24,486 bases of DNA. Origin: a virus. The notes beneath the pieces were generated by a model. The model saw only the letters and a list, made by a program, of their open reading frames with translations, was not told the DNA's origin and ran no database searches. Positions within the stretch are counted from its first letter, which is position 1. Each line of letters starts with the position of its first letter. Shown in pieces: positions 388-11,170 of this stretch. The position numbers were made by a program, and so were the translations under genes. The stretch spans positions 1-24,486 of the IMG/VR virus record IMGVR_UViG_3300046000_003341, one strand, 5' to 3'.

Positions 388-2834
388 TGCCTACTGAGGA
401 AAATAACCTAAATTCGTTCCTTTCAAACTACCGTGTTATTACAACGGCTACGGAATCCACGGACTTAGAAACAGCGAATATTCTCAAGCATATCATCATT
501 ACAGTAGAGCAAAAGGAAGTAACGCCCACCATATACTTTAGTCGCGGCATCATTCCCTATCTCGCACCAACGGAAGACCTTAATCTGTATACGGACACCC
601 TTGGAGTAGCCCCCCAACTTGGTATCTCGTTTGAGTATGCAAACTTCTTTGCAGGTGTAACATTTCTGCAAAATCTTAATCTGCACATGGCATATGATGG
701 GGATCAATTAGACGATGCTGCCCATTGCACGGTTGGCTATGCTGTCGGTGGTGTGAACATGTATGGAGCCTTCAAACCTCTGTACGACAACTACCGATTG
801 TTGCAACAATATCCCTACTTTTACACTTTGACTGCGGGAAATGAACCTTATGCCACATCAACATTTAGTGGGGTAACTGAAAAGGGATCGTCAGCAGGAA
901 CCTACACCCTAGTGAACTTTGGTGGGACAATTGCTCCATTTCAGTTGATGTTTCACCCCAATACTGTCGGGGTCACTCATTCAGCAGGGTTGCCGATAGG
1001 AACAGGAGGAAATCCGCTCTATTTTGGGTTGTCTGCTAATTCATCGCTCAACACATCAATCAAGTCTTTGTATTTCAATCCTGATATGCATTTCTCCTTG
1101 AGGAGAAATCTTAGTATATTGAAGGATCGTGGAATAACTTTCGATGCTTTGCTTGCATCATTTGAGCCTCACTATCAATTTGTAAAGTACTCAGACAATG
1201 ATTTCACGGACACCCTTGCGAATATCATTTCCCTCTACAACGGCAACACAGCCAATCCCGCATGGACGGTAGAGTTGTTGCGAAGCGCAGGAACAACTTC
1301 GGGTGTGGTAAATCTCCAAGGTTTCAATACTGCTAACGACTTCAACAACCGATTCTTTGAGGAAATCAAAAAATATCCAAGAAAATATAAGACTACTGCC
1401 GAAGAGTTTAACATAGGGCATTATGGGATTCCTTACTCGACAAGTATGTTTGGTTGGTCGAGTCAAATACCAAATCCAGGTATCGCTGTTGACGGAACAG
1501 GACCATACGCTTCTGTTGGCTCACAGTACTACCTTACGCGCCTTGCAGGGCTTACTCTCTATCCACCCCCTCAGACATACAACTATGGCGGGAACACCTC
1601 CTTTGGGGGTTCAGGTGGCACTAGCAGATGGAATTCTTACAACAGAGCAAAGGCACTAGATTCCTCTTACTTCCCTGAGTATTTCAAGATGGGTGGGACT
1701 GCCGCCGCCTTCTTGACAGGGTTCACAGCATCTAATTTAGTCCCCGCAAACATACTCAAGTTGTTTGATGACACAAGTGGTCGAATTGGGCCTCTAGGGA
1801 CGAGAATGAACTTTCTTGATTCATATTACTATGATTTGTATCAAGAGACATTACAGTATGGTGGGTATCGGTATGTGAATTTCTACCCTATGGAGTTTAC
1901 TACTAGATCCAACCCACTTATTCCTATGCAAGTGAAGGGATCTTTGTCTCGCAACTATCATTCTAGACGAGATTGTACAATACATCAAGATCTTGGTGGA
2001 AACACAGCAGAGCGATTATTCAATCTAAAGAAGAGCATAAGCGATAGCATACATTCTGCCCTAAAGATGTGGAAACTTTCACTCGATGAGGTGGGTAAGT
2101 TCGATTATCGAATCATGCCGACTATAAGTGGGCGAAGTGAAGATCTAGACCTTACAAGAGGTGGCTCTGTTCCATACTCAGCGGAAGATTTTGTAGAGTA
2201 CTTAGTGACCCCTTTGTTTGATGGTGATGTCCCTGCTAATGGGTTCATATTGAAGGATGATGTAAACGAGTACCTTCTTAACGGGTTTTATTACGGAAAC
2301 CTTGTTAGGGGGGCAAACGAGTACACCAATGTGATCACGAATAGTGGTGCTTCAGGAACAGATAAAACAACCGCATTTGTTCGTGGAATGGAAACTTATT
2401 TCTTTGACTTACAATCAACACAACACAATATGGTGGGAAGCATGTTGTCTGATTTTGGGCTTACTCTTACTGATCCACACACATCAGAATACTTGAACAC
2501 GACAAACTCAGGACGATTTAGCGATTATCGAGTATTTGAAACCAATACAGGAATAACTGGCGGAAACACTAAGATTCCTTATGGGTTCAACGGCTCTTTC
2601 AAATGGTATGGAGTTCCGTTGAACTCTAGTTGCATCATTACAAGAAACTTGTCTTTGAGGAGTCGTTGGCTATCTACGACCAACGACAACATAAATACTG
2701 CGTATGAGATTCTCAGAGATGCTTACTTCGAACTAACGAAAGAACAAATTAGTGCGACCAAGGCTTACTTTGTCTCCAACGACATTACAACTTTGGTGGA
2801 GTATAGAGCGACAGATAAAAGTGTAGGAAGGTGA
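387..2834 (+). CDS. Large protein of unknown function inserted between gp15 and gp16
   Basis: This is an 815-residue protein that I do not recognise. It begins with ATG overlapping the gp15 stop by one base and ends just before gp16, so it is expressed with tail-completion and packaging genes. It has no visible signal peptide or membrane span. The composition is rich in Tyr, Phe, Asn, Gly, Ser and Thr, with a Gly-rich linker near residues 401-412, which looks like a virion or host-contact protein. The C-terminal 100 residues become more helical and charged. T4 has no gene here. By context (inference) it may be a tail, neck or fibre-like structural component; an enzyme is less likely because I see no catalytic motif. 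Length, intact frame and codon use like its neighbours argue that it is a real gene. Confidence 0.8.
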   Translation: MPTEENNLNSFLSNYRVITTATESTDLETANILKHIIITVEQKEVTPTIYFSRGIIPYLAPTEDLNLYTDTLGVAPQLGISFEYANFFAGVTFLQNLNLHMAYDGDQLDDAAHCTVGYAVGGVNMYGAFKPLYDNYRLLQQYPYFYTLTAGNEPYATSTFSGVTEKGSSAGTYTLVNFGGTIAPFQLMFHPNTVGVTHSAGLPIGTGGNPLYFGLSANSSLNTSIKSLYFNPDMHFSLRRNLSILKDRGITFDALLASFEPHYQFVKYSDNDFTDTLANIISLYNGNTANPAWTVELLRSAGTTSGVVNLQGFNTANDFNNRFFEEIKKYPRKYKTTAEEFNIGHYGIPYSTSMFGWSSQIPNPGIAVDGTGPYASVGSQYYLTRLAGLTLYPPPQTYNYGGNTSFGGSGGTSRWNSYNRAKALDSSYFPEYFKMGGTAAAFLTGFTASNLVPANILKLFDDTSGRIGPLGTRMNFLDSYYYDLYQETLQYGGYRYVNFYPMEFTTRSNPLIPMQVKGSLSRNYHSRRDCTIHQDLGGNTAERLFNLKKSISDSIHSALKMWKLSLDEVGKFDYRIMPTISGRSEDLDLTRGGSVPYSAEDFVEYLVTPLFDGDVPANGFILKDDVNEYLLNGFYYGNLVRGANEYTNVITNSGASGTDKTTAFVRGMETYFFDLQSTQHNMVGSMLSDFGLTLTDPHTSEYLNTTNSGRFSDYRVFETNTGITGGNTKIPYGFNGSFKWYGVPLNSSCIITRNLSLRSRWLSTTNDNINTAYEILRDAYFELTKEQISATKAYFVSNDITTLVEYRATDKSVGR
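2825..2831 (+). promoter_or_regulatory. Ribosome binding site that sets the gp16 start
   Basis: AGGAAGG lies 8 bases before the ATG at 2840. The GTG at 2831 in the same frame has no comparable site in front of it, so ATG 2840 is the likely start. The site lies inside the end of the preceding gene. Confidence 0.6.
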
Positions 2835-2839
2835 TTATT

Positions 2840-3349
2840 ATGAGTAAAATGGATGAAAATATTTCGGAGATTCTCAATATGAATCCCGAACCCGCCGCCA
2901 TCATTGTCAGAAAAGATGATTCTCACCTTCCAAAGGGTGTGGTTGTTGGCATGGATGAAGTTGACAAGGATTTTCAAACGGCGCGAAAGAACATCAAGGA
3001 ACTCATTTCCCTTGGATTCAACGCCATAGATGGCATAATGAAGGTGGCATCCGAAGGTGACTCCCCTAGAGCCTATGAAGTGGTATCTCAAATGATCAAG
3101 ACTGTGGCTGAAGCAAACAGAGATTTGGTAGAACTACATCAACGAATGAAGACAATCAAGCAAGAGAAGTATGAGCCTACCACAGTAACAAACACCTCAA
3201 ATTCTTTGTTTCTTGGTTCGACAAAAGACTTACTTGAATTGATGAATCCTAAGCGCAGTTTCACTAAATCGGTGGCAGAATCTTCTGTTATCTTGGACGA
3301 AACAAAAGGATTGATAGATCATGATACCGAAAAAACCAAACAAACCTAA
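2840..3349 (+). CDS. 16: Terminase small subunit (gp16-like)
   Basis: The protein has 169 residues from ATG 2840, close to the T4 gp16 length of 164. In T4, gp16 forms a ring that recognises viral DNA and stimulates the ATPase and nuclease of gp17. The N-terminus carries the family pattern NPEPA followed by PKGVVV and a DxDF-type segment, then a helical core with AIDGIM and the PRAYEV motif (around residues 72-77), and a TKDLLELM segment near residue 130. An in-frame GTG at 2831 would add three residues, but the ribosome site favours ATG 2840. The gene overlaps the start of the large subunit by 29 bases (3321-3349), so the two subunits are probably translationally coupled. Confidence 0.88.
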   Translation: MSKMDENISEILNMNPEPAAIIVRKDDSHLPKGVVVGMDEVDKDFQTARKNIKELISLGFNAIDGIMKVASEGDSPRAYEVVSQMIKTVAEANRDLVELHQRMKTIKQEKYEPTTVTNTSNSLFLGSTKDLLELMNPKRSFTKSVAESSVILDETKGLIDHDTEKTKQT

Positions 3350-3737
3350 CAAACCTGTAGAAACCAAGAACTATCTTGGCAATTCAAATCTTAAAGCATC
3401 AGATGTTCCGATTCAGTTCACGAAGCATCAGTTGGAAGAGTATGCTCGTTGTCAACGAGATCCTGTATACTTCATTCGAAATTATGTAAAGATTATCAGT
3501 CTAGACAAGGGTCTTGTTCCGTTTGACCTCTACGACTTTCAAGAAGAGATTGTCCAAAGCATTCACAACAATAGATTTGTTATCGCAAAATTGCCTCGCC
3601 AGACGGGCAAGTGTTTCGATATATATACTAAGGTGAATGTTCGTAATAAGAAAACTGGCGAAGTCCGTGAAATGACCGTAGGAGAACTATATGATAACAT
3701 CAAAACCAACCAAGACCAAAAACTGCCTCCATTGTGA
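3321..3737 (+). CDS. 17: Terminase large subunit, N-terminal fragment fused to a split-intein N-segment (gp17-N/IntN)
   Basis: This 138-residue ORF holds the first 97 residues of the packaging motor ATPase plus about 41 residues of intein. Residues 31-97 match the start of T4-type gp17, including the DFQEEIV segment and the P-loop beginning RQTGK (residues 93-97). Right after the P-loop Lys comes Cys98, then an intein block A pattern (C-F-D-I-Y-T-K-V) and a short helix (MTVGELYDNI); the frame then stops. Alone it cannot bind ATP properly, because the P-loop Ser/Thr is missing. The rest of the enzyme is encoded at 4661-6427. The ATG lies within the end of gp16, with AAAGGA at 3305-3310 as a possible ribosome site. 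The predicted product of trans-splicing is a 566-residue terminase; T4 gp17 is 610. Confidence 0.9.
   Translation: MIPKKPNKPNKPVETKNYLGNSNLKASDVPIQFTKHQLEEYARCQRDPVYFIRNYVKIISLDKGLVPFDLYDFQEEIVQSIHNNRFVIAKLPRQTGKCFDIYTKVNVRNKKTGEVREMTVGELYDNIKTNQDQKLPPL
3612..3734 (+). other. Split intein, N-terminal segment (IntN), 41 residues
   Basis: The segment begins with the nucleophile Cys1 (TGT at 3612-3614), with block A Thr at intein position 6. It stops after 41 residues, well before any block B histidine. The structured part is probably the first 30 or so residues. The last 15 are encoded where the endonuclease gene overlaps in another frame, so their sequence may be constrained by that gene rather than by splicing. 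Known typical split inteins (Npu DnaE) have IntN segments of about 100 residues. This one is of the short-IntN kind known from AceL-TerL (25 residues, from memory). Confidence 0.85.
3680..3684 (+). promoter_or_regulatory. Ribosome binding site for the homing endonuclease, inside the IntN coding sequence
   Basis: AGGAG is followed by 6 bases and ATG at 3691. Both the site and the start codon lie within the IntN reading frame, so the endonuclease is independently initiated yet likely coupled to terminase translation. Confidence 0.65.
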
Positions 3738-4668
3738 GAAAGAGTTTGAATACAAGAAGAAGTCTGCAAAGTTTTGTTGTCTTAGATGCCAACAAATGAA
3801 CAAAAGAGCAAATACTATCGTCGATGAGACGGGGATGGTTGCCTGTGGCTCTTGTGGCATGAAAGCCCATGATTTGGTTGGTCATATCACAAAGATCCAC
3901 AAAATGTCTGTGGGCGATTACAAAGCCCTCTACAACACCCCCACACGAAGCGACAAATATATGCAAGAGCAGTCTGATCGTATCAAAGGGGATAAGAACC
4001 CAGGATGGCAACATGGTGGGAAATTCTCCTCTCTGTCTGACAACTTCATTCATGCGAACACGACCGACAAGGCAGCAGTCATTGAAAAGATTTCCAAGTC
4101 AAACAAAGAAAATGGAAACAATGACTGCACTATGGCATATTGGAAAAATAAAGGATTTACTGAAGAGCAAGCAACAGAGAAATTGTCTGAACGACAGACC
4201 ACATTCTCATTGGATATCTGTATTGAAAAGTATGGACAAGAAGAAGGAACCAAACGATGGTCTGAACGACAAGAGAAGTGGTTGAAAAATTACAAGAAAA
4301 CCAACTTCTCCAAGGTTTCTCAATTATTGTTTTGGGAAATATACAACCAAATGTTGACAAAAACTGATGTATACTTCGCCTCCCTTTTTGGTGGTATTTG
4401 TGATGATTCAGGAAAAAATCATGAATATGTCTTAAAGACAAAAGAGATGTCCGTGAAACCCGATTTTTATCACGAACCAACAAAATCCATCATCGAGTTT
4501 GATGGAGACTATTGGCATGGAAAACATAGAGGAGACGATACAAGAGAGAAGGAAAGAGACGCAGCACTTCTCAAAGAAGGCTTCCGAGTCCTCCATATCA
4601 AAGAACGAGACTACAGAGCAAATCCAAACCAAGTGACAATACAATGTTTGGAGTTTCTAAATGGCTGA
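3691..4668 (+). CDS. Free-standing homing endonuclease, zinc-finger plus Vsr-like (EDxHD-type) nuclease
   Basis: A 325-residue protein encoded between the two halves of the split terminase gene. Residues 12-33 form a CxxC...CxxC zinc finger (Cys12, 15, 29 or 30, and 33). Residues 52-70 form a second finger of C2H2 kind (Cys52, Cys55, His65, His70). Residues 92-110 carry a KGDKNPGW stretch resembling NUMOD3-type DNA-contact modules. Residues 145-200 hold two related helical units, each ending in SERQ. The C-terminal part is a Vsr-like fold: PDF (Asp258), then Glu269-x-Asp271...His276 and further acids, a pattern like the EDxHD homing nucleases. Known role of the family: cutting intein-free alleles to drive homing; the target here would be the terminase P-loop codons (inference). 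It starts inside IntN and ends 5 bases into IntC. Confidence 0.85.
   Translation: MITSKPTKTKNCLHCEKEFEYKKKSAKFCCLRCQQMNKRANTIVDETGMVACGSCGMKAHDLVGHITKIHKMSVGDYKALYNTPTRSDKYMQEQSDRIKGDKNPGWQHGGKFSSLSDNFIHANTTDKAAVIEKISKSNKENGNNDCTMAYWKNKGFTEEQATEKLSERQTTFSLDICIEKYGQEEGTKRWSERQEKWLKNYKKTNFSKVSQLLFWEIYNQMLTKTDVYFASLFGGICDDSGKNHEYVLKTKEMSVKPDFYHEPTKSIIEFDGDYWHGKHRGDDTREKERDAALLKEGFRVLHIKERDYRANPNQVTIQCLEFLNG
4650..4653 (+). promoter_or_regulatory. Ribosome binding site for the IntC-terminase ORF
   Basis: GGAG stands 7 bases before ATG 4661, inside the end of the endonuclease gene. It lets the second terminase fragment be initiated on its own, as trans-splicing needs. Confidence 0.5.
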
Positions 4669-5017
4669 ATTTACAAAAGAATTTACAACAGATGAGTGGG
4701 AAGTTGAAACACCAACAGGATGGCAGTCATTCTCAGGTATAGGTGAAACTATTCCATACAAGGTTTGGGTGCTAAAAACCATCAACTTATCCCTGAGATG
4801 TGCAGATAAGCACATAGTGTATAGATTAGACGCTCATACAAATACAATAGAAGAAACTTTTGTTGATGAATTGCATATTGGTGATATTATCCAGACCAAA
4901 CATGGCTATGAGATTGTCACATCCGTAGAAGAAACAGATGAAATTGTTCCCATGTACGATCTCACTGATGTTGATGGAGGGAATGTCTACTATACCAATG
5001 ACATTCTTTCTCACAAT
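4661..5017 (+). other. Split intein, C-terminal segment (IntC), 119 residues
   Basis: The segment carries all intein blocks after block A. Residues 15-27 (a TPTGW...FSGI stretch) look like the strand pair normally following block A. Block B has His51, but the usual Thr three residues earlier is Ala48. A VGD-like turn (HIGDII, residues 72-77) follows. Block F begins near PMYDLTDV, and the segment ends in block G with His118-Asn119, the catalytic pair for Asn cyclisation. Ser120 is the +1 extein nucleophile. There is no LAGLIDADG endonuclease domain in it. The endonuclease function is supplied by the separate gene upstream. Confidence 0.87.
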
Positions 5018-6427
5018 TCGACAACAATCACCGCATATCTTCTTCATTATATTTTGTTCAATCAGAGTGTGAATGTTGCCATTCTCGCTAACAAGATGGC
5101 TACCGCGCGAGAACTTCTCGGTCGTTTGAAACTTGCCTATGAATATCTTCCGAAGTGGTTGCAGCAGGGCATCGTAGAATGGAACAAAGGGTCAATCCAA
5201 TTAGAGAACGGATCAAGAGTCCTTGCTTCCGCGACTTCTTCTTCGGCAATTCGTGGTGGAAGTTTTTCCGCAATTTTGCTTGACGAATTTGCTTATGTTC
5301 CTCAAGAAATTGCAGAAGAGTTTTTCTCGTCGGTATACCCAACTATCTCTTCGGGTACTGAAACAAAACTTATGATTGTGTCCACACCACACGGTATGAA
5401 TTTGTTCTACAAGTTGTGGACAGATGCGATCAATCGACGAAATTCTTATATTCCATTTGAGGTACATTGGTCTGATGTTCCAGGCAGAGACGAAAAGTGG
5501 CGACTTGAAACAATTGCAAATACGAGCGAAGAGCAATTCAACACAGAGCATGGATGTGAATTTCTTGGCTCTATCCAAACCTTAATATCACCCGCCAAAC
5601 TAAAGACTCTTGCATACATAGACCCCATCGTAAAGAACGGGGATGGTTTTAAGGTATACGAAAAACCCGAACCCAAACATGTATATGTCATGTGTGTGGA
5701 TACCTCTAGAGGAACAGGAAATGATTATTCCGCATTCACAATAATTGACATAACCCATTCGCCCTACAAATTGGTGGCTATTTTTAAGAATAACATAATT
5801 TCCCCGATGGTGTTCCCTACAGCGATTGATGTTGCCGCCAAACAATACAACAACGCTCATGTGTTGATTGAGTTGAATGATATGGGTGAGGCTATCGCAA
5901 ACTCTATGCATTCTGAGTTAGAGTATGGAAATATAATCAGCGTGAGTCACAAAGGGAGAAAGGGGCAAGTCGTAGATGGGGGGTTTGGTTCGGGTGGCAG
6001 TCAGTTGGGTGTGAGAACGAGTGAGCCTGTAAAGCGAATGGGGTGTTCTACTCTAAAGTCAATGATTGAGTCAAATAGATTGATTATTCAAGATTATGAC
6101 ACTATCAGAGAACTTTTCTCCTTTGTGGTAAGAAAAAACTCCTTTGAAGCAGAACCAGGTCACAACGACGATTTGGTGATGACATTGGTACTCTTTTCGT
6201 GGTTGTGTACTCAGCCATATTTCAAGGATATGACGAACATGAACATCAAGCATGAGATGTTCTCAGAGACAATCAAACAACTCGAAGATGATATGACCCC
6301 ATTTGGATTTCTAGATGATGGTGATGATACTCCAGTTCCTGAGCGGGAGGCTGACGGATCGTTGTGGTACAAGGATGCCAAGGAAAAGTATGAGGAATGG
6401 CAATCTACCCGAAATCAATGGTCGTAA
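4661..6427 (+). CDS. 17: Terminase large subunit, C-terminal fragment preceded by a split-intein C-segment (IntC/gp17-C)
   Basis: The ORF has 588 residues: 119 of intein, then 469 of packaging motor. Extein residues start with STT, completing the P-loop begun in the other fragment. Walker B is LLDE (Asp208, Glu209), followed by the ATPase coupling motif STP (residues 241-243). The nuclease domain that cuts the DNA concatemer has its RNase-H-like acids at Asp347 (CVDTS), Glu404 (LIELND) and Asp503/504 (HNDD). In T4 the spliced equivalent docks on the portal and pumps DNA into the prohead. The start ATG overlaps the endonuclease stop by 8 bases. The last 50 residues are acidic and probably flexible. 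Without trans-splicing to the first fragment the ATPase would be incomplete. Confidence 0.92.
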   Translation: MAEFTKEFTTDEWEVETPTGWQSFSGIGETIPYKVWVLKTINLSLRCADKHIVYRLDAHTNTIEETFVDELHIGDIIQTKHGYEIVTSVEETDEIVPMYDLTDVDGGNVYYTNDILSHNSTTITAYLLHYILFNQSVNVAILANKMATARELLGRLKLAYEYLPKWLQQGIVEWNKGSIQLENGSRVLASATSSSAIRGGSFSAILLDEFAYVPQEIAEEFFSSVYPTISSGTETKLMIVSTPHGMNLFYKLWTDAINRRNSYIPFEVHWSDVPGRDEKWRLETIANTSEEQFNTEHGCEFLGSIQTLISPAKLKTLAYIDPIVKNGDGFKVYEKPEPKHVYVMCVDTSRGTGNDYSAFTIIDITHSPYKLVAIFKNNIISPMVFPTAIDVAAKQYNNAHVLIELNDMGEAIANSMHSELEYGNIISVSHKGRKGQVVDGGFGSGGSQLGVRTSEPVKRMGCSTLKSMIESNRLIIQDYDTIRELFSFVVRKNSFEAEPGHNDDLVMTLVLFSWLCTQPYFKDMTNMNIKHEMFSETIKQLEDDMTPFGFLDDGDDTPVPEREADGSLWYKDAKEKYEEWQSTRNQWS

Positions 6428-6475: not shown

Positions 6476-8377
6476 ATGAGCAGAATACCAATCCAACTAA
6501 GCCCAGGGGTGAACTTTTCAGAAATTGACCTCTCGACGGTTGTTCCTAATGTTGCAACAGCAACAGGAGCGATTGCGGGGGTTTTCCAATGGGGGCCAGC
6601 AGAAAAGATCGTCACCGTCACCTCGGAAGACCAACTCGTTGGTATTTTCGGTAAGCCTTTGCGCGAAGAAGACGGTATCGACTTCCATTGTGCAGCAAAC
6701 TTCCTCCAATATAGCCGCGACCTCCGTGTAGTCCGTGTTGTTGGCAGCGACGAAAGCAACGCTAACACCGATGGAATCACCAACGCTCAATACCTAAACG
6801 AAGATGTCCTTGGTGCAGAATCGGCTCTTCCTGCGGCATTTTACGCGAAATATCCTGGTATTATGGGTAATTCACTCAAAGTCGTATTGATTGACGGTAA
6901 TGGTGAAGCAGACCTAACTACAGGCACTACTGCTGCTGTCGCCACAAACACCATAAAGTTTACATCAATTCTTGGAGGCACAGCCGAAGAGAATGATAAG
7001 TTGATTTTCCAAACCGCAAATTTCTCGCAGACATTCTTGATTGAGTCTGCTACGGGCTTCACCGCCACGGTAAAGAACTTTGTCGCAAGCACAATTGCAA
7101 GCGGATCAACTGTCAAGTTCCGTAGTAAGTATTCAGATCTCTTCCAACTCGATGCCACGACAAGCACACAGGCTTTGAATCGTGGTGGATCTAACGACGA
7201 ATTGAATGTCGTTGTCATTGACGAAGATGGCGATTTTACGGGTACGGATGGTGCAATCCTTGAAGTATTCCAAAATGTCTCCAAGGCATACGATGCTCGG
7301 GACAACGATGGTGCGCCAAACTATGTCTCTAGCGTGATAAACAATAACTCAAACTTTATTTGGGCTGCTGATCTAGAGCCACTTTGGGGAGGATCTGTCC
7401 CTCAAGCACTCACCACAGCCTTTGGAGATATCACCACAGGGTTTACTGCTGCCAATGTGTCTAAGTTCAGTCTAAGTGGTGCAACTGCCGCCGTGAGTAG
7501 CACAGCACGACTTTACATTGGTGGTTATAGCAAGTTCATTGACCGTGACAGCGTTGACATTTCTCTGCTCATCTCAGGTAGAGCAGATACAACCAATGTT
7601 AAGTTGCTTTCGGATCTTGTCAATGACCGTAAGGATTGCGTCTTGTTTGTGTCACCAAAACTCACTGATGTCCTCAATAAGACGCAATCACAAGCGACAA
7701 GTCTAATTCTTACGACTCGCAACAGCACTTATAACATTAACTCGTCATATTGTGTGATGGATAGTGGTTGGAAGTACATCTACGACAAGTACAATGATAT
7801 GTTCCGCTACATTCCACTCAATCCTGATATTGCGGGGCTTTGTGCGAGAACCGAATTCAACACACAGAGTTGGTTCTCCCCTGCGGGTCTGAACCGTGGA
7901 TTTATCAAGAATGTCATCAAGTTGGCATTCAATCCTGATCAAGGAGCAAGAGATATTCTTTATGTTGCAGGAATCAACCCTGTGGCTACCTTTAGTGGTG
8001 AAGGAACCCTACTCTACGGCGACAAGACCATGTTGAAGAAGCCAAGTGCCTTCGACAGAATCAATGTGCGTAGACTTTTCATCACCCTTGAAAAGGCTAT
8101 TGCTACAGCATCTAAATACTCATTGTTCGAACTCAATGATGAATTTACTCGTTCACAGTTTAGAAATCTTGTTAATCCATATCTCCGTAATGTACAGGCT
8201 CAACGAGGTATCACCGATTTCCGTGTGGTGTGTGATGAAACCAACAATACTGCTCAAGTTATTGACAACAATCAGTTTGTGGCGGACATCTACATCAAAC
8301 CAAATCGTAGCATCAACTTCATTCAATTGAACTTTATCGCGACTCGAACCGATAGCGCATTCACAGAGATCATCTAA
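6476..8377 (+). CDS. 18: Tail sheath protein, first copy (gp18-like)
   Basis: A 633-residue protein; T4 gp18 has 659. The contractile sheath surrounds the tail tube and shortens on infection. The N-terminus has the family signature LSPGV followed by a GxxxGxFQWGPA stretch and FGKP (residues 8-60). The C-terminal part holds the conserved SWFSPAGLNRG region (about 463-474), then GDKT, FDRINVRRLF and FTRSQFRN, and ends with NFIATRT. These match the T4 sheath closely. Initiation is at ATG 6476 with GGGAG at 6465-6469. It is followed after 9 bases by a paralogue. Residues 130-235, between the shared segments, form the variable surface domain expected in sheath proteins. Which of the two copies forms most of the sheath cannot be told from sequence. 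Confidence 0.93.
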   Translation: MSRIPIQLSPGVNFSEIDLSTVVPNVATATGAIAGVFQWGPAEKIVTVTSEDQLVGIFGKPLREEDGIDFHCAANFLQYSRDLRVVRVVGSDESNANTDGITNAQYLNEDVLGAESALPAAFYAKYPGIMGNSLKVVLIDGNGEADLTTGTTAAVATNTIKFTSILGGTAEENDKLIFQTANFSQTFLIESATGFTATVKNFVASTIASGSTVKFRSKYSDLFQLDATTSTQALNRGGSNDELNVVVIDEDGDFTGTDGAILEVFQNVSKAYDARDNDGAPNYVSSVINNNSNFIWAADLEPLWGGSVPQALTTAFGDITTGFTAANVSKFSLSGATAAVSSTARLYIGGYSKFIDRDSVDISLLISGRADTTNVKLLSDLVNDRKDCVLFVSPKLTDVLNKTQSQATSLILTTRNSTYNINSSYCVMDSGWKYIYDKYNDMFRYIPLNPDIAGLCARTEFNTQSWFSPAGLNRGFIKNVIKLAFNPDQGARDILYVAGINPVATFSGEGTLLYGDKTMLKKPSAFDRINVRRLFITLEKAIATASKYSLFELNDEFTRSQFRNLVNPYLRNVQAQRGITDFRVVCDETNNTAQVIDNNQFVADIYIKPNRSINFIQLNFIATRTDSAFTEII

Positions 8378-8386
8378 GGAGAGATA

Positions 8387-11170
8387 ATGGCTAATCCGAT
8401 TCCAACTCAACTCAGTCCAGGCGTTAAGGTTTCAGAAGTAGACCTATCGCAATTTGTTCAACTCGAATCGTTAAATACTGCGGGTATGGTTGGTATTTTC
8501 AATTGGGGGCCAGGCTCGATTGCGACCTCTGTGAACTCAGAGAGTAATCTTGCCGCCATATTCGGTAAGCCAACACTCGATCCATCAGATTCCACAACAG
8601 AGTCAGACTTCTTTGCTGCCTCAAACTTCCTTCGATATTCAAACCACTTGAAGGTTATTCGTGTCATTCAAGCGGGTGATTCCAATGCCGCATCTGAAGA
8701 TATTGGAGTTACAGGCATAAACAATTGTGACAATCGAATCATCAGTAACCACGAAGAATTTGTTCAACTTGGTGGATTCTCTGCATCAGCAGGTATTGAG
8801 TCATTGGCTCACTTTAGAGCGCGATACCCAGGAAACTTTGGTGACACCTTCAAGGTAGTTGTGTTTGACGGGGCTACAGGCGAAACCATCTTCACAGACA
8901 CTGCGGGTCTTCAAGATTTCAATTTGTTTGGTGGTTATAACAATATCATAGGAATTTCTGGTGGAACATGCGGTTTCTCACTTACCGCAACTAGATCAAA
9001 TACCATACTTTTTGATGACGGTTTGGGAAATGAGTTTGAACTAGAAGTGCCTGTAAGTATGGGTGCTACTTCAGGGATCATTAATTGGTACACAGTAACG
9101 GTTACCCCACCAAGTAATATGACACCAACAGAGTTTATTAACTCCTTCGGTAGCGAAGATAAGTTCAACCTTCTGTATGCAACAGGAACAACTACCGCAA
9201 ATTATGCTCTGACAAATTCGGGAACTAACCCAAGCGGAAACAACTCGAATTGTTTTGCGGCTGATTTTAATTTTATTGGTGGAGGTGTTGGCTCTGAGGG
9301 AAGAAGTGTAAATCCTTTTTCAGAGTTTGCTGCCTCCCCAATCTCTCTCTTTGCTGCGGTATCGTCACTTAACGCAAGCGCGGTAGATATACTGTTCTTA
9401 GATGCCAACAATACTAACATGGGCGATTGGGTAATTGGACAGAGTACTGGCATTAGGCACACTTCAAACCCTAATGTAACTTCACTCATAAATAATATTT
9501 CACATTCCGCAACATCGGGTTCGGGTTTGCCAACGAACTTCAATCGGTCTATATTTAATCAAAGTCAAGCAGATACTCCATTCAATACTACTTCATTCTT
9601 CTTATACCGTAATGTTTGGGGATCAGGTATCGGCGCGGGGATATTTCCTAACAGCCCAAACAGTAGTACAAGCCCTCGCGGTTGGTTTAAGTTTATCGGT
9701 CTGACTGGAGGTCAACTGGTGAATCATTGGGTAGACGGAAACCTTACTCAGGTTGGAGTCACCTTTGATTTGGTTGGTGGACTTACGGGAATCAAGAGGG
9801 ATTTTCAATTCGGGATGAAGCAACTCGGTAACTTTGGTTTGGGAACACAATCTGAAACCACAGAGTCTTATGACGGTTACCGTATCTTTGATAAGATGCC
9901 AGGAACTTCGGAGGCTGCTCTTGCTGTGGGTGGATCCAACGACGAGATCAGCATTGCAGTTCTCGACACTAACGGTAAGTTCGGGCCTAAGAACGGTCTT
10001 CTTGAAAGATTTGAACTTCTTTCGAAGGCTGTTGACGGAAAAAACCTTGATGGGCAATCCGTCTTCTATAAGGATTATGTCAACAACAACTCTCAATTTG
10101 TGTATCTTACCAAAGCATTTGCACTTGAGGCAGGAGATTATACATCAGATCTTACTACCGCCTTCGGTGATATCACATCCGAAACCAAGGGAGCGGACGG
10201 CATCACATTTACTCGCACAGGGTATTATGACCGACAGTTCGCTTTTGGTGAATCTAGCGCGTCCGCAGTAACTGTTGCGGAACAAGTAGCAGCATATTCG
10301 ACATTCCTCGATGACGATAGTGCTGTAGATATCATCTTTATTCCTGAGTCTTCGGTAGCGGATGATACTGACGGTAGCATGGCTACTGTCGAGAAGTTGG
10401 TATACGACACGGTAATCGAACCTCGTAAGGATACCATCCTTGTCGTGTCTACACCTAAGCCAGCGTCTTCGACTCAACACACAGCGATGGCTACATCAAA
10501 GGCTATTTCGTATCGTAAGAATCAGTTGGGGCTTCCTTCAAACTCATACACAGTCCTTGTAGCGGGTCGTAAGATATTCTTCGACACCTTCAACAATCAA
10601 CTAAGAAGAATTTCTTTGGCTTCTGATGTTGCGGGTATCATGTCAGGGCAAGAGATTCCTTGGGAGTCACCTGCGGGGTTTGCGCGTGGTTCGTTGCGAA
10701 ATGTCATCAAGTTGGAGACCCTTTTCTCTAAGACAGACCGCGATGAACTCTACAAGAATCAAATTAACTTCTTCACTCAGTTCAATGATGGTTCGGGAAC
10801 CGTTCTTTACGGAGACAAGACTCTTCTCACTAAGCCTAGTGCGTTTGACCGAATCAATGTTCGTCGCGTGTTTATCGCTGCGGAAAAGGCTATCGCTAAG
10901 GCTGCTAAATACTCATTGTTTGAGTTCAATGACGAGTTTACTCGTTCGCAATTCAGAAACCTCGTCAATCCATTCCTAGCGAATCTTCAATCCCAACGGG
11001 GAATTGCCGATTTCCGTGTGGTTTGTGATGCGACGAATAACCCAGGAAGCGTAGTTGACCTAAATCAGTTTGTAGCAGACATCTATATCAAACCATTGAA
11101 GTCTATCAACTTTATTCAGTTGAACTTTATTGCAACACGAAGTGATTTCAGTCTAACCACCATCGAATAA
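8387..11170 (+). CDS. Tail sheath protein, second copy with large central insertion (gp18 paralogue)
   Basis: A 927-residue paralogue of the preceding gene, about 290 residues longer. N-terminal residues 1-165 and C-terminal residues from about 514 onward align with the first copy (QLSPGV, FNWGPG, FGKP at the start; GGSNDE, SPAGFARG, GDKT, FDRINVRR, FTRSQFRN near the end). The extra length lies between about 165 and 514 and is rich in Asn, Ser, Thr, Gly and Phe, like beta-rich surface domains. It begins after a strong site (TAAGGAGA at 8375-8382) that contains the stop codon of the first copy. It could be a minor sheath subunit, a ring at one end of the tail, or a decorated sheath; the sequence does not decide. 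The frame is intact and conserved segments are kept, so it is not a decaying duplicate. Confidence 0.9.
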   Translation: MANPIPTQLSPGVKVSEVDLSQFVQLESLNTAGMVGIFNWGPGSIATSVNSESNLAAIFGKPTLDPSDSTTESDFFAASNFLRYSNHLKVIRVIQAGDSNAASEDIGVTGINNCDNRIISNHEEFVQLGGFSASAGIESLAHFRARYPGNFGDTFKVVVFDGATGETIFTDTAGLQDFNLFGGYNNIIGISGGTCGFSLTATRSNTILFDDGLGNEFELEVPVSMGATSGIINWYTVTVTPPSNMTPTEFINSFGSEDKFNLLYATGTTTANYALTNSGTNPSGNNSNCFAADFNFIGGGVGSEGRSVNPFSEFAASPISLFAAVSSLNASAVDILFLDANNTNMGDWVIGQSTGIRHTSNPNVTSLINNISHSATSGSGLPTNFNRSIFNQSQADTPFNTTSFFLYRNVWGSGIGAGIFPNSPNSSTSPRGWFKFIGLTGGQLVNHWVDGNLTQVGVTFDLVGGLTGIKRDFQFGMKQLGNFGLGTQSETTESYDGYRIFDKMPGTSEAALAVGGSNDEISIAVLDTNGKFGPKNGLLERFELLSKAVDGKNLDGQSVFYKDYVNNNSQFVYLTKAFALEAGDYTSDLTTAFGDITSETKGADGITFTRTGYYDRQFAFGESSASAVTVAEQVAAYSTFLDDDSAVDIIFIPESSVADDTDGSMATVEKLVYDTVIEPRKDTILVVSTPKPASSTQHTAMATSKAISYRKNQLGLPSNSYTVLVAGRKIFFDTFNNQLRRISLASDVAGIMSGQEIPWESPAGFARGSLRNVIKLETLFSKTDRDELYKNQINFFTQFNDGSGTVLYGDKTLLTKPSAFDRINVRRVFIAAEKAIAKAAKYSLFEFNDEFTRSQFRNLVNPFLANLQSQRGIADFRVVCDATNNPGSVVDLNQFVADIYIKPLKSINFIQLNFIATRSDFSLTTIE

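What the first reader, a model, noticed from the sequence alone, without database searches (positions are those of the whole stretch)
3321..6427. Large terminase gene broken into two ORFs by a split intein with an endonuclease gene between them
Seen: the N-fragment ends in a Cys-led intein segment, the C-fragment begins with an intein segment ending His-Asn-Ser, and the exteins rejoin into a complete 566-residue gp17. A Vsr-like endonuclease fills the gap. Known: this matches the fractured-gene split inteins described from ocean metagenomes, of which few full genomic contexts exist. The whole element is intact here in its native phage synteny, so it is a strong candidate for a functional trans-splicing system.
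Basis: partly seen in the sequence, partly recalled or inferred. Interest (0 to 1): 0.92.

Follow-up and report, generated by a model that had tools for sequence, protein, structure and literature searches.

The report
Terminase gene split by trans-splicing intein
A phage's essential DNA-packaging motor gene is cut in two at its ATP-binding loop by a mobile element whose two protein halves should weld the motor back together after translation; the arrangement is a known kind, but its relatives go much further, with the same motor encoded in up to four separate genes.

Summary
A T4-type large terminase (gp17/TerL) is encoded by two ORFs, 3321-3737 and 4661-6427, with an EDxHD (Vsr-like) endonuclease ORF, 3691-4668, overlapping both. 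The break lies exactly between Lys and Ser of the Walker A loop (RQTGK^STT). The N piece ends in a 41-aa Cys-led IntN; the C piece starts with a 119-aa IntC ending in HN|S. Joining the exteins gives a 566-aa TerL matching 79 intein-free homologues. Two other metagenome contigs reproduce the locus, including the stop. The intein folds like VidaL; the endonuclease matches I-Bth0305I.
It is a new member of a known kind: "fractured genes" (Dassa 2009) with atypically split inteins (AceL-TerL, GOS-TerL, Cat, VidaL), at a different TerL site and in a separate clade (53/53 site-A inteins together, 100/94). It is not rare: 60 non-redundant site-A loci were read.
The relatives surprise more. TerL also occurs in three or four ORFs with two or three split inteins. 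Cultured Vibrio phage vB_VmeM-32, Salicola phage SCTP-2 and a 306-kb contig carry the pieces far apart on opposite strands, where only trans-splicing could join them. Splicing is inferred, not shown.

The parts
3305..3309 (+). Shine-Dalgarno-like AAAGG before the N ORF
   Evidence: sequence
3321..3611 (+). N-extein of TerL (97 aa), ending in Walker A RQTGK
3612..3734 (+). IntN, 41 aa, Cys1 (block A); stop TGA 3735-3737
   Evidence: aligned with IntN of 11 split relatives and one contiguous intein
3680..3684 (+). AGGAG, Shine-Dalgarno-like, 6 nt before the endonuclease ATG, inside the IntN coding sequence
   Evidence: sequence
3691..4668 (+). EDxHD (Vsr-like) homing endonuclease, 325 aa; N-terminal Cys/His motifs, C-terminal IEFDGDYWH nuclease motif; overlaps N ORF by 47 nt and C ORF by 8 nt
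   Evidence: Pfam DUF559 E 4.3e-6; profile vs I-Bth0305I 3r3p E 1.3e-4; top fold hit 3r3p, prob 1.00, TMt 0.71-0.73; alignment A4
4650..4653 (+). GGAG, Shine-Dalgarno-like, before the C ORF, inside the last endonuclease codons
   Evidence: sequence
4661..5017 (+). IntC, 119 aa, blocks B (CADKH), F and G, ends in His-Asn
5018..6424 (+). C-extein of TerL (469 aa), +1 residue Ser of Walker A; Walker B ILLDE and RNase H-like nuclease domain; stop 6425-6427
   Evidence: Terminase_6N E 2.9e-20, Terminase_6C E 1.7e-12; gp17 3ezk E 2.8e-85

Best explanation
This is a fractured large-terminase gene. An atypically split, Cys1/Ser+1 intein sits between Lys and Ser of the Walker A loop, and a free-standing EDxHD homing-endonuclease gene fills the gap. 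Three overlapping ORFs are probably translated from one message, each with its own Shine-Dalgarno-like site. The N-terminase-IntN and IntC-C-terminase proteins associate; the reconstituted intein excises itself in trans and joins Lys to Ser, giving an ordinary 566-aa TerL with an intact ATP-binding loop. Until that happens the packaging motor cannot bind ATP normally. The endonuclease is inferred to cut intein-free terL alleles in mixed infections, so that repair copies the whole block, and to have opened the gene originally by inserting at the intein's linker. Shown here: anatomy, homology, reproducibility, Hint fold of a sister intein, empty sites, selection on both halves, and independent gain/loss of intein and endonuclease in relatives. 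Inferred: splicing, cutting, and that the window's phage is viable.
For: Exact break in Walker A, with exteins matching 79 intein-free homologues and gp17 structures. IntC hits CatC E 1.8e-7 and VidaL E 2.8e-3 by sequence; family profile VidaL 2e-13, CatC 4.5e-13, gp41-1 6e-13. L105 IntN-stop-IntC read as one chain: pLDDT 84.9, best Foldseek hit VidaL, E 5.8e-10, TMt 0.82. Invariant Cys1 in the IntN alignment and ADxH, SHN in the IntC alignment. Two further contigs carry the same stop and junctions. Purifying selection: window/L082 IntC dN/dS about 0.07, endonuclease 0.08 (synonymous sites near saturation); in the unsaturated pair L170/L173 IntC-A has 9 synonymous vs 1 non-synonymous changes, extein 3 has 14 vs 0. 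L105 keeps both halves without the endonuclease and retains what look like the last endonuclease codons (EFLNG*), a likely deletion scar. Relatives of the same family have the halves on opposite strands and far apart: Vibrio phage vB_VmeM-32 (IntN piece 79,947-80,624 minus; IntC piece 1,102-3,216 plus), Salicola phage SCTP-2 (three loci), 306-kb contig G002 (four loci). There no frameshift, read-through or RNA intron could join the pieces.
Against: No splicing, cutting or virion data for this phage or any site-A relative. The fold was computed for the sister L105 (IntC 67% identical), not the window. Block B has Ala where inteins usually have Thr three before His (CADKH), though the whole family does. 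The 41-aa IntN has a variable tail. Host and phage are uncultured, and the window is a 24-kb fragment. The scar in L105 rests on only about 10 diagnostic bases. The Foldseek E-value of the endonuclease is weak (0.013), although 3r3p ranks first.
Confidence: 0.93

Rival explanations
1. The two halves work as an unspliced, non-covalently associated two-piece terminase, the intein parts being passive tails (as reported for a phage ribonucleotide reductase split by a homing endonuclease).
For: Such genes-in-pieces exist (cited in PMC10448857 and PMC3322345). No splicing data here.
Against: The break is inside the P-loop between Lys and Ser, where a 41-aa and a 119-aa tail would block ATP binding. 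Splicing residues are invariant in the family, and IntC is under strong purifying selection. All splice residues and the fold are intact.
Confidence: 0.04
2. The break is decay: a pseudogene or dead intein in a defective genome, or an assembly artefact.
For: Metagenomic, uncultured, fragmentary.
Against: Three contigs from separate metagenomes agree. All three ORFs are open, overlap with ribosome-binding sites and are conserved at about 70-77% in L082 with low dN/dS. The packaging neighbourhood is intact, and no intact second terL was found in the record.
Confidence: 0.02
3. The gap is removed at RNA level (group I/II intron), or the ribosome bypasses it by frameshift or read-through.
For: Similar arrangements in Campylobacter phages were annotated as intron-associated (PMC3322345; F379).
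Against: No Rfam match in the window at E up to 0.1. The N and C pieces carry intein halves, which an intron does not need. The ORFs lie in frames 0, +1, +2 with 21 stops in the terL frame across the endonuclease. Relatives have the pieces on opposite strands.
Confidence: 0.01

Closest known systems
Fractured genes with split inteins and EDxHD/Vsr-like endonucleases (Dassa et al. 2009, NAR 37:2560; paper not held, content from my own knowledge)
   Same: Conserved phage enzyme broken by a split intein with a free-standing endonuclease gene between the halves; same endonuclease family
   Different: As I recall it, the published set is mainly DNA synthesis and repair enzymes; here it is the packaging motor. 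Relatives show two or three such breaks in one gene, or dispersal of the pieces
AceL-TerL, GOS-TerL and consensus Cat intein (6dsl)
   Same: Split inteins in phage TerL with a very short IntN (25-37 aa) and long IntC (104-115 aa) (PMC11766414)
   Different: They use Cys+1. A near-CatC IntC sits at |CEFLGS in L117, so that family belongs to site C. The window intein is at Walker A with Ser+1 and in a different clade
VidaL intein (6vgv)
   Same: Closest solved structure to the site-A intein, also an atypical split
   Different: Only about 22% identity over the fold match
Contiguous Walker A inteins in TerL of Ackermannviridae (Serratia phiMAM1, Salmonella and Klebsiella phages, some annotated 'intein')
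   Same: Same insertion point, same intein clade
   Different: One uninterrupted ORF, cis-splicing, no endonuclease
I-Bth0305I (3r3p), EDxHD homing endonuclease
   Same: Catalytic domain matches by profile (E 1.3e-4) and fold (prob 1.00)
   Different: 3r3p is named a mobile intron protein; here the gene is lodged in a split intein
ShiLan domain: hidden out-of-frame HNH in a phage methylase (PMC11855218)
   Same: Precedent for the nested out-of-frame endonucleases seen in relatives L142, L148, L159 and L082 site B
   Different: ShiLan has no splicing domain; here the nested gene lies within an intein

Membership tests
Fractured gene with split intein | Conserved gene in two ORFs, each ending or starting with the matching intein half | tested here: met
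Fractured gene with split intein | Free-standing endonuclease gene between the halves | tested here: met
   ORF 3691-4668
Intein (Hint domain) | Nucleophile at position 1, block B His, C-terminal His-Asn, nucleophile at +1 | tested here: met
   Cys1, CADKH, HN, Ser+1; H and HN invariant in 17 IntC rows, Cys1 in 13 IntN rows. The Thr usual in block B is Ala
Intein (Hint domain) | Hint fold | tested here: met
   Model of sister L105, pLDDT 84.9, best hit VidaL TMt 0.82; the window itself not folded as a fused chain
Intein (Hint domain) | Splicing activity | not testable with these tools
   needs co-expression or proteomics
Atypically split intein | IntN well below about 100 aa, IntC carrying block B onward | tested here: met
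   IntN 41 aa, IntC 119 aa
AceL-TerL/GOS-TerL/Cat subfamily | TerL insertion before Cys of CEFLG, Cys+1 | tested here: not met
   Window insertion is GK|S; site-A inteins form a clade apart from site C
EDxHD homing endonuclease | Sequence and fold of the I-Bth0305I catalytic domain with conserved acidic/His residues | tested here: met
EDxHD homing endonuclease | Cuts intein-free terL at the insertion site | not testable with these tools
   biochemistry needed; empty sites exist
Vsr mismatch endonuclease | Pfam/NCBIfam score above the curated cut-off | tested here: not met
   17.4 vs 27 bits and 22.4 vs 97.85 bits: related, not a member
Group I intron | Rfam match in or around the insert | tested here: not met

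The most novel reading that the evidence does not exclude
The window's gene is the one-break state of a series in which phage terminases are broken at up to three active-site motifs (Walker A, Walker B, CEFLG) by inteins of separate lineages, and must be assembled by two or three trans-splicing reactions. In L163, L170/L177 and L195 four adjacent ORFs encode one TerL. In contig G002 (306 kb) the four pieces lie at about 169, 185, 200 and 230 kb on both strands with three split inteins. In cultured Salicola phage SCTP-2 three pieces lie at 216-218, 256-257 and 429 kb on both strands, and in cultured Vibrio phage vB_VmeM-32 the N piece lies about 80 kb from the rest on the other strand. I found no report of a natural protein needing two or three split inteins, but Dassa 2009 and most subscription papers could not be read.
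Probability: 0.8. Interest if true: 0.82.

Novelty: new member of a known kind. Interest (0 to 1): 0.62.

Why it matters
The window gives a clean natural system in which an essential motor has no P-loop until two proteins are spliced. It anchors a family in which every step can be read from sister genomes: empty site, contiguous intein, fracture by an endonuclease, endonuclease loss, gene dispersal, and accumulation of two or three breaks in one gene. This makes the origin of split genes and the rule of orthogonal pairing (three inteins in one protein must not mispair) directly testable, some of it in cultured phages. It also supplies natural sets of co-existing, presumably orthogonal split inteins with short IntN for protein engineering.

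Tried and rejected
Group I/II intron: no Rfam hit. Assembly error: excluded by L081 and L103. Pfam/NCBIfam on the N piece gave no useful hit; structure-chain search was needed. Membership in Vsr proper: below curated cut-offs. dN/dS of window vs L082/L105 is near saturation for most segments, so I used L170/L173; one sub-segment (HENnuc) was taken out of frame and is discarded. Automatic junction calls for some distant loci are wrong by a few residues or are HMM gaps rather than inteins (entries marked '?'); only loci read by eye support the multi-break claim. In G004 the far N piece (222.6 kb) ends 'SRQMGGMNLPM' without a recognisable IntN, so I do not count it as dispersed trans-splicing. 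Literature: Dassa 2009 is not held; searches for natural two- or three-split-intein proteins and for split inteins in terminase found nothing beyond reviews, single-intein cases and engineered systems.

Full report
What is in the window. The N ORF 3321-3737 carries 97 aa of terminase ending in KLPRQTGK, then a 41-aa tail starting with Cys. The C ORF 4661-6427 starts with 119 aa ending in ILSHN, then 469 aa of terminase starting STTITAYLL. T4 gp17 structures match the N part up to the break and the C part from the break onward. Seventy-nine of the eighty nearest homologues in viral contigs read straight through the same point, so the empty site is known: the insert lies between Lys and Ser of the Walker A loop. 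The gap is occupied by a 325-aa ORF (3691-4668) that overlaps the N ORF by 47 nt and the C ORF by 8 nt. All three starts have a Shine-Dalgarno-like sequence, which fits coupled translation from one message (inference). Two other contigs from different metagenomes reproduce the junctions and the stop with one to two SNPs elsewhere.

What the parts are. IntC matches the consensus atypical intein CatC and VidaL by sequence, and the family profile reaches VidaL, CatC, gp41-1 and NrdJ-1. In the sister locus L105 the two halves are separated by a single in-frame TAA, so they could be read as one chain; the model has pLDDT 84.9 and its best structural match is VidaL, followed by many inteins. The endonuclease belongs to the EDxHD family: motif IE[FY][DN]GxYWH (W lost in L082) plus a downstream Glu are conserved in 14 relatives, the profile hits I-Bth0305I, and that is also the top fold match. 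It is below the curated cut-offs for Vsr itself.

Selection and history. Between the window and L082 the IntC and endonuclease have low dN/dS (0.07, 0.08, with near-saturated synonymous sites); in the closer pair L170/L173 the intein halves and exteins change almost only synonymously. L105 has lost the endonuclease but keeps, before the C-half start codon, what look like its last codons (EFLNG*); I read this as a deletion scar, on about ten diagnostic bases.

How common and how varied. A scan with a 17-row IntC alignment brought in 80 viral and 14 bacterial-bin loci. Mapping all with a TerL HMM gave 60 non-redundant loci with both sides of the Walker A site resolved: 48 split, 32 of them with an EDxHD gene or remnant, and 12 contiguous. 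Retrieval was by similarity, so these are not prevalence figures. A tree of 76 IntC puts all 53 site-A inteins together (100/94), with inteins of the other two TerL sites outside. Within site A, split/contiguous state changes at least 7 times and endonuclease presence at least 18 times.

Beyond one break. TerL has two more intein sites: within Walker B (LLY|CDE or DE|C) and before CEFLG. The CEFLG-site IntC of L117 is nearly CatC, so AceL-TerL-like inteins belong there. By eye, L082 and L090 need at least two splicings, and L163, L170/L177 and L195 have four adjacent ORFs with a split intein at every site. Sister contigs L170 and L173 (93-99% identical around the sites) show an entire 534-nt endonuclease-less split intein present in one and absent from the other at Walker B, with base changes clustered in the first codons after the junction and Leu replaced by Cys at +1, and an 881-nt endonuclease insert present only in L173 at the third site.

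Pieces far apart. Searching whole records with an intein-free TerL found that in cultured Vibrio phage vB_VmeM-32 the N piece (ending SRQLGK|CVTGDTKITVRNKRTGEIKEMSIKDFHETTKKPA) is at 79,947-80,624 on the minus strand near the small terminase gene, the rest at 1,102-3,216 on the plus strand. In cultured Salicola phage SCTP-2 three pieces lie at 429,356-429,748 (minus), 256,428-257,321 (plus) and 215,993-218,077 (minus). In contig G002 four pieces lie near 185 (minus), 169 (minus), 230 (plus) and 200 kb (minus), each with the right intein halves. Only joining of separate proteins could restore TerL there. These are relatives (IntC 38-41% identical to the window's for the two cultured phages), so they support, but do not prove, trans-splicing in the window.

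Nested endonucleases. In L142, L148, L159 and L082 (Walker B site) the TerL-intein ORF stays open through an entire 260-304-codon endonuclease gene in the +1 frame: 0 stops against 13.9-17.7 expected, never reached in 20,000 synonymous shuffles each, while 18 comparison endonucleases show 17-72 stops in that frame. The loci were noticed because they were open, but the shuffle odds are far beyond that selection. An out-of-frame HNH in a phage methylase without an intein is a published precedent (PMC11855218).

Comparison and verdict. The window is a new member of the fractured-gene kind with an atypically split intein; the site differs from AceL-TerL and GOS-TerL, and contiguous inteins at the same site are annotated in Ackermannviridae. 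Earlier work on Campylobacter phage IBB_35 described an intein and an endonuclease in terL, and the related Campylobacter phage F379 has a three-gene arrangement at a site two residues upstream. The multi-break and dispersed terminases are, as far as the held literature shows, new variants of the kind; I keep them as the novel case because the window itself has one break.

Noticed in passing
L163:373-5438; L170:2298-5671 (=L177); L195:7619-12276: TerL encoded by four adjacent ORFs with three split inteins (Walker A, Walker B, CEFLG sites); some gaps hold HNH, GIY-YIG or EDxHD genes, others none.
   Followed up: yes
L222/L110/L223 (Salicola phage SCTP-2); L224/L112 (Vibrio phage vB_VmeM-32); L225, L226, L227, L236 (contig G002): TerL pieces with matching intein halves dispersed tens of kb apart on both strands, two of them in cultured phages.
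   Followed up: yes
L142:8156-8995; L148:2788-3687; L159:7099-8013; L082:5038-5820: Endonuclease genes nested in the +1 frame inside an uninterrupted TerL-intein ORF; zero stops where 14-18 are expected.
   Followed up: partly
L170:3545-4081 against L173:9587-9591; L173:10010-11017: Sister contigs differ by a whole endonuclease-less split intein at Walker B (with a Leu to Cys change at +1) and by an endonuclease gene at the CEFLG site.
   Followed up: yes
L083:1934-4965: The same endonuclease and IntC family next to a predicted gp46-type recombination nuclease, apparently at its Walker A loop (HN|SFAFLDSITFALFG); host gene named from sequence by eye, N piece not checked.
   Followed up: no
L113:3480-6210 (Caulobacter phage Cr30): Free-standing EDxHD gene between terS and an intein-free terL whose Walker A site reads RQSAKS instead of RQxGKS; perhaps a resistant target.
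   Followed up: no
L129:6034-9093: EDxHD endonuclease fused in frame to IntC and the C half of TerL (1019 aa).
   Followed up: no
L239:1373-4719 (Campylobacter phage F379): Fractured terL with a nuclease-like gene between the halves, two residues upstream of site A (PRQ|SSKSTT), annotated as intron-associated.
   Followed up: partly
window 6476-8377 and 8387-11170: Two adjacent tail-sheath-like genes, similar at their starts and ends: apparently a tandem sheath duplication.
   Followed up: no
L081:402-1175: A GIY-YIG-like ORF just outside the window's left edge in the matching contig, so more homing-type genes near the packaging cluster.
   Followed up: no
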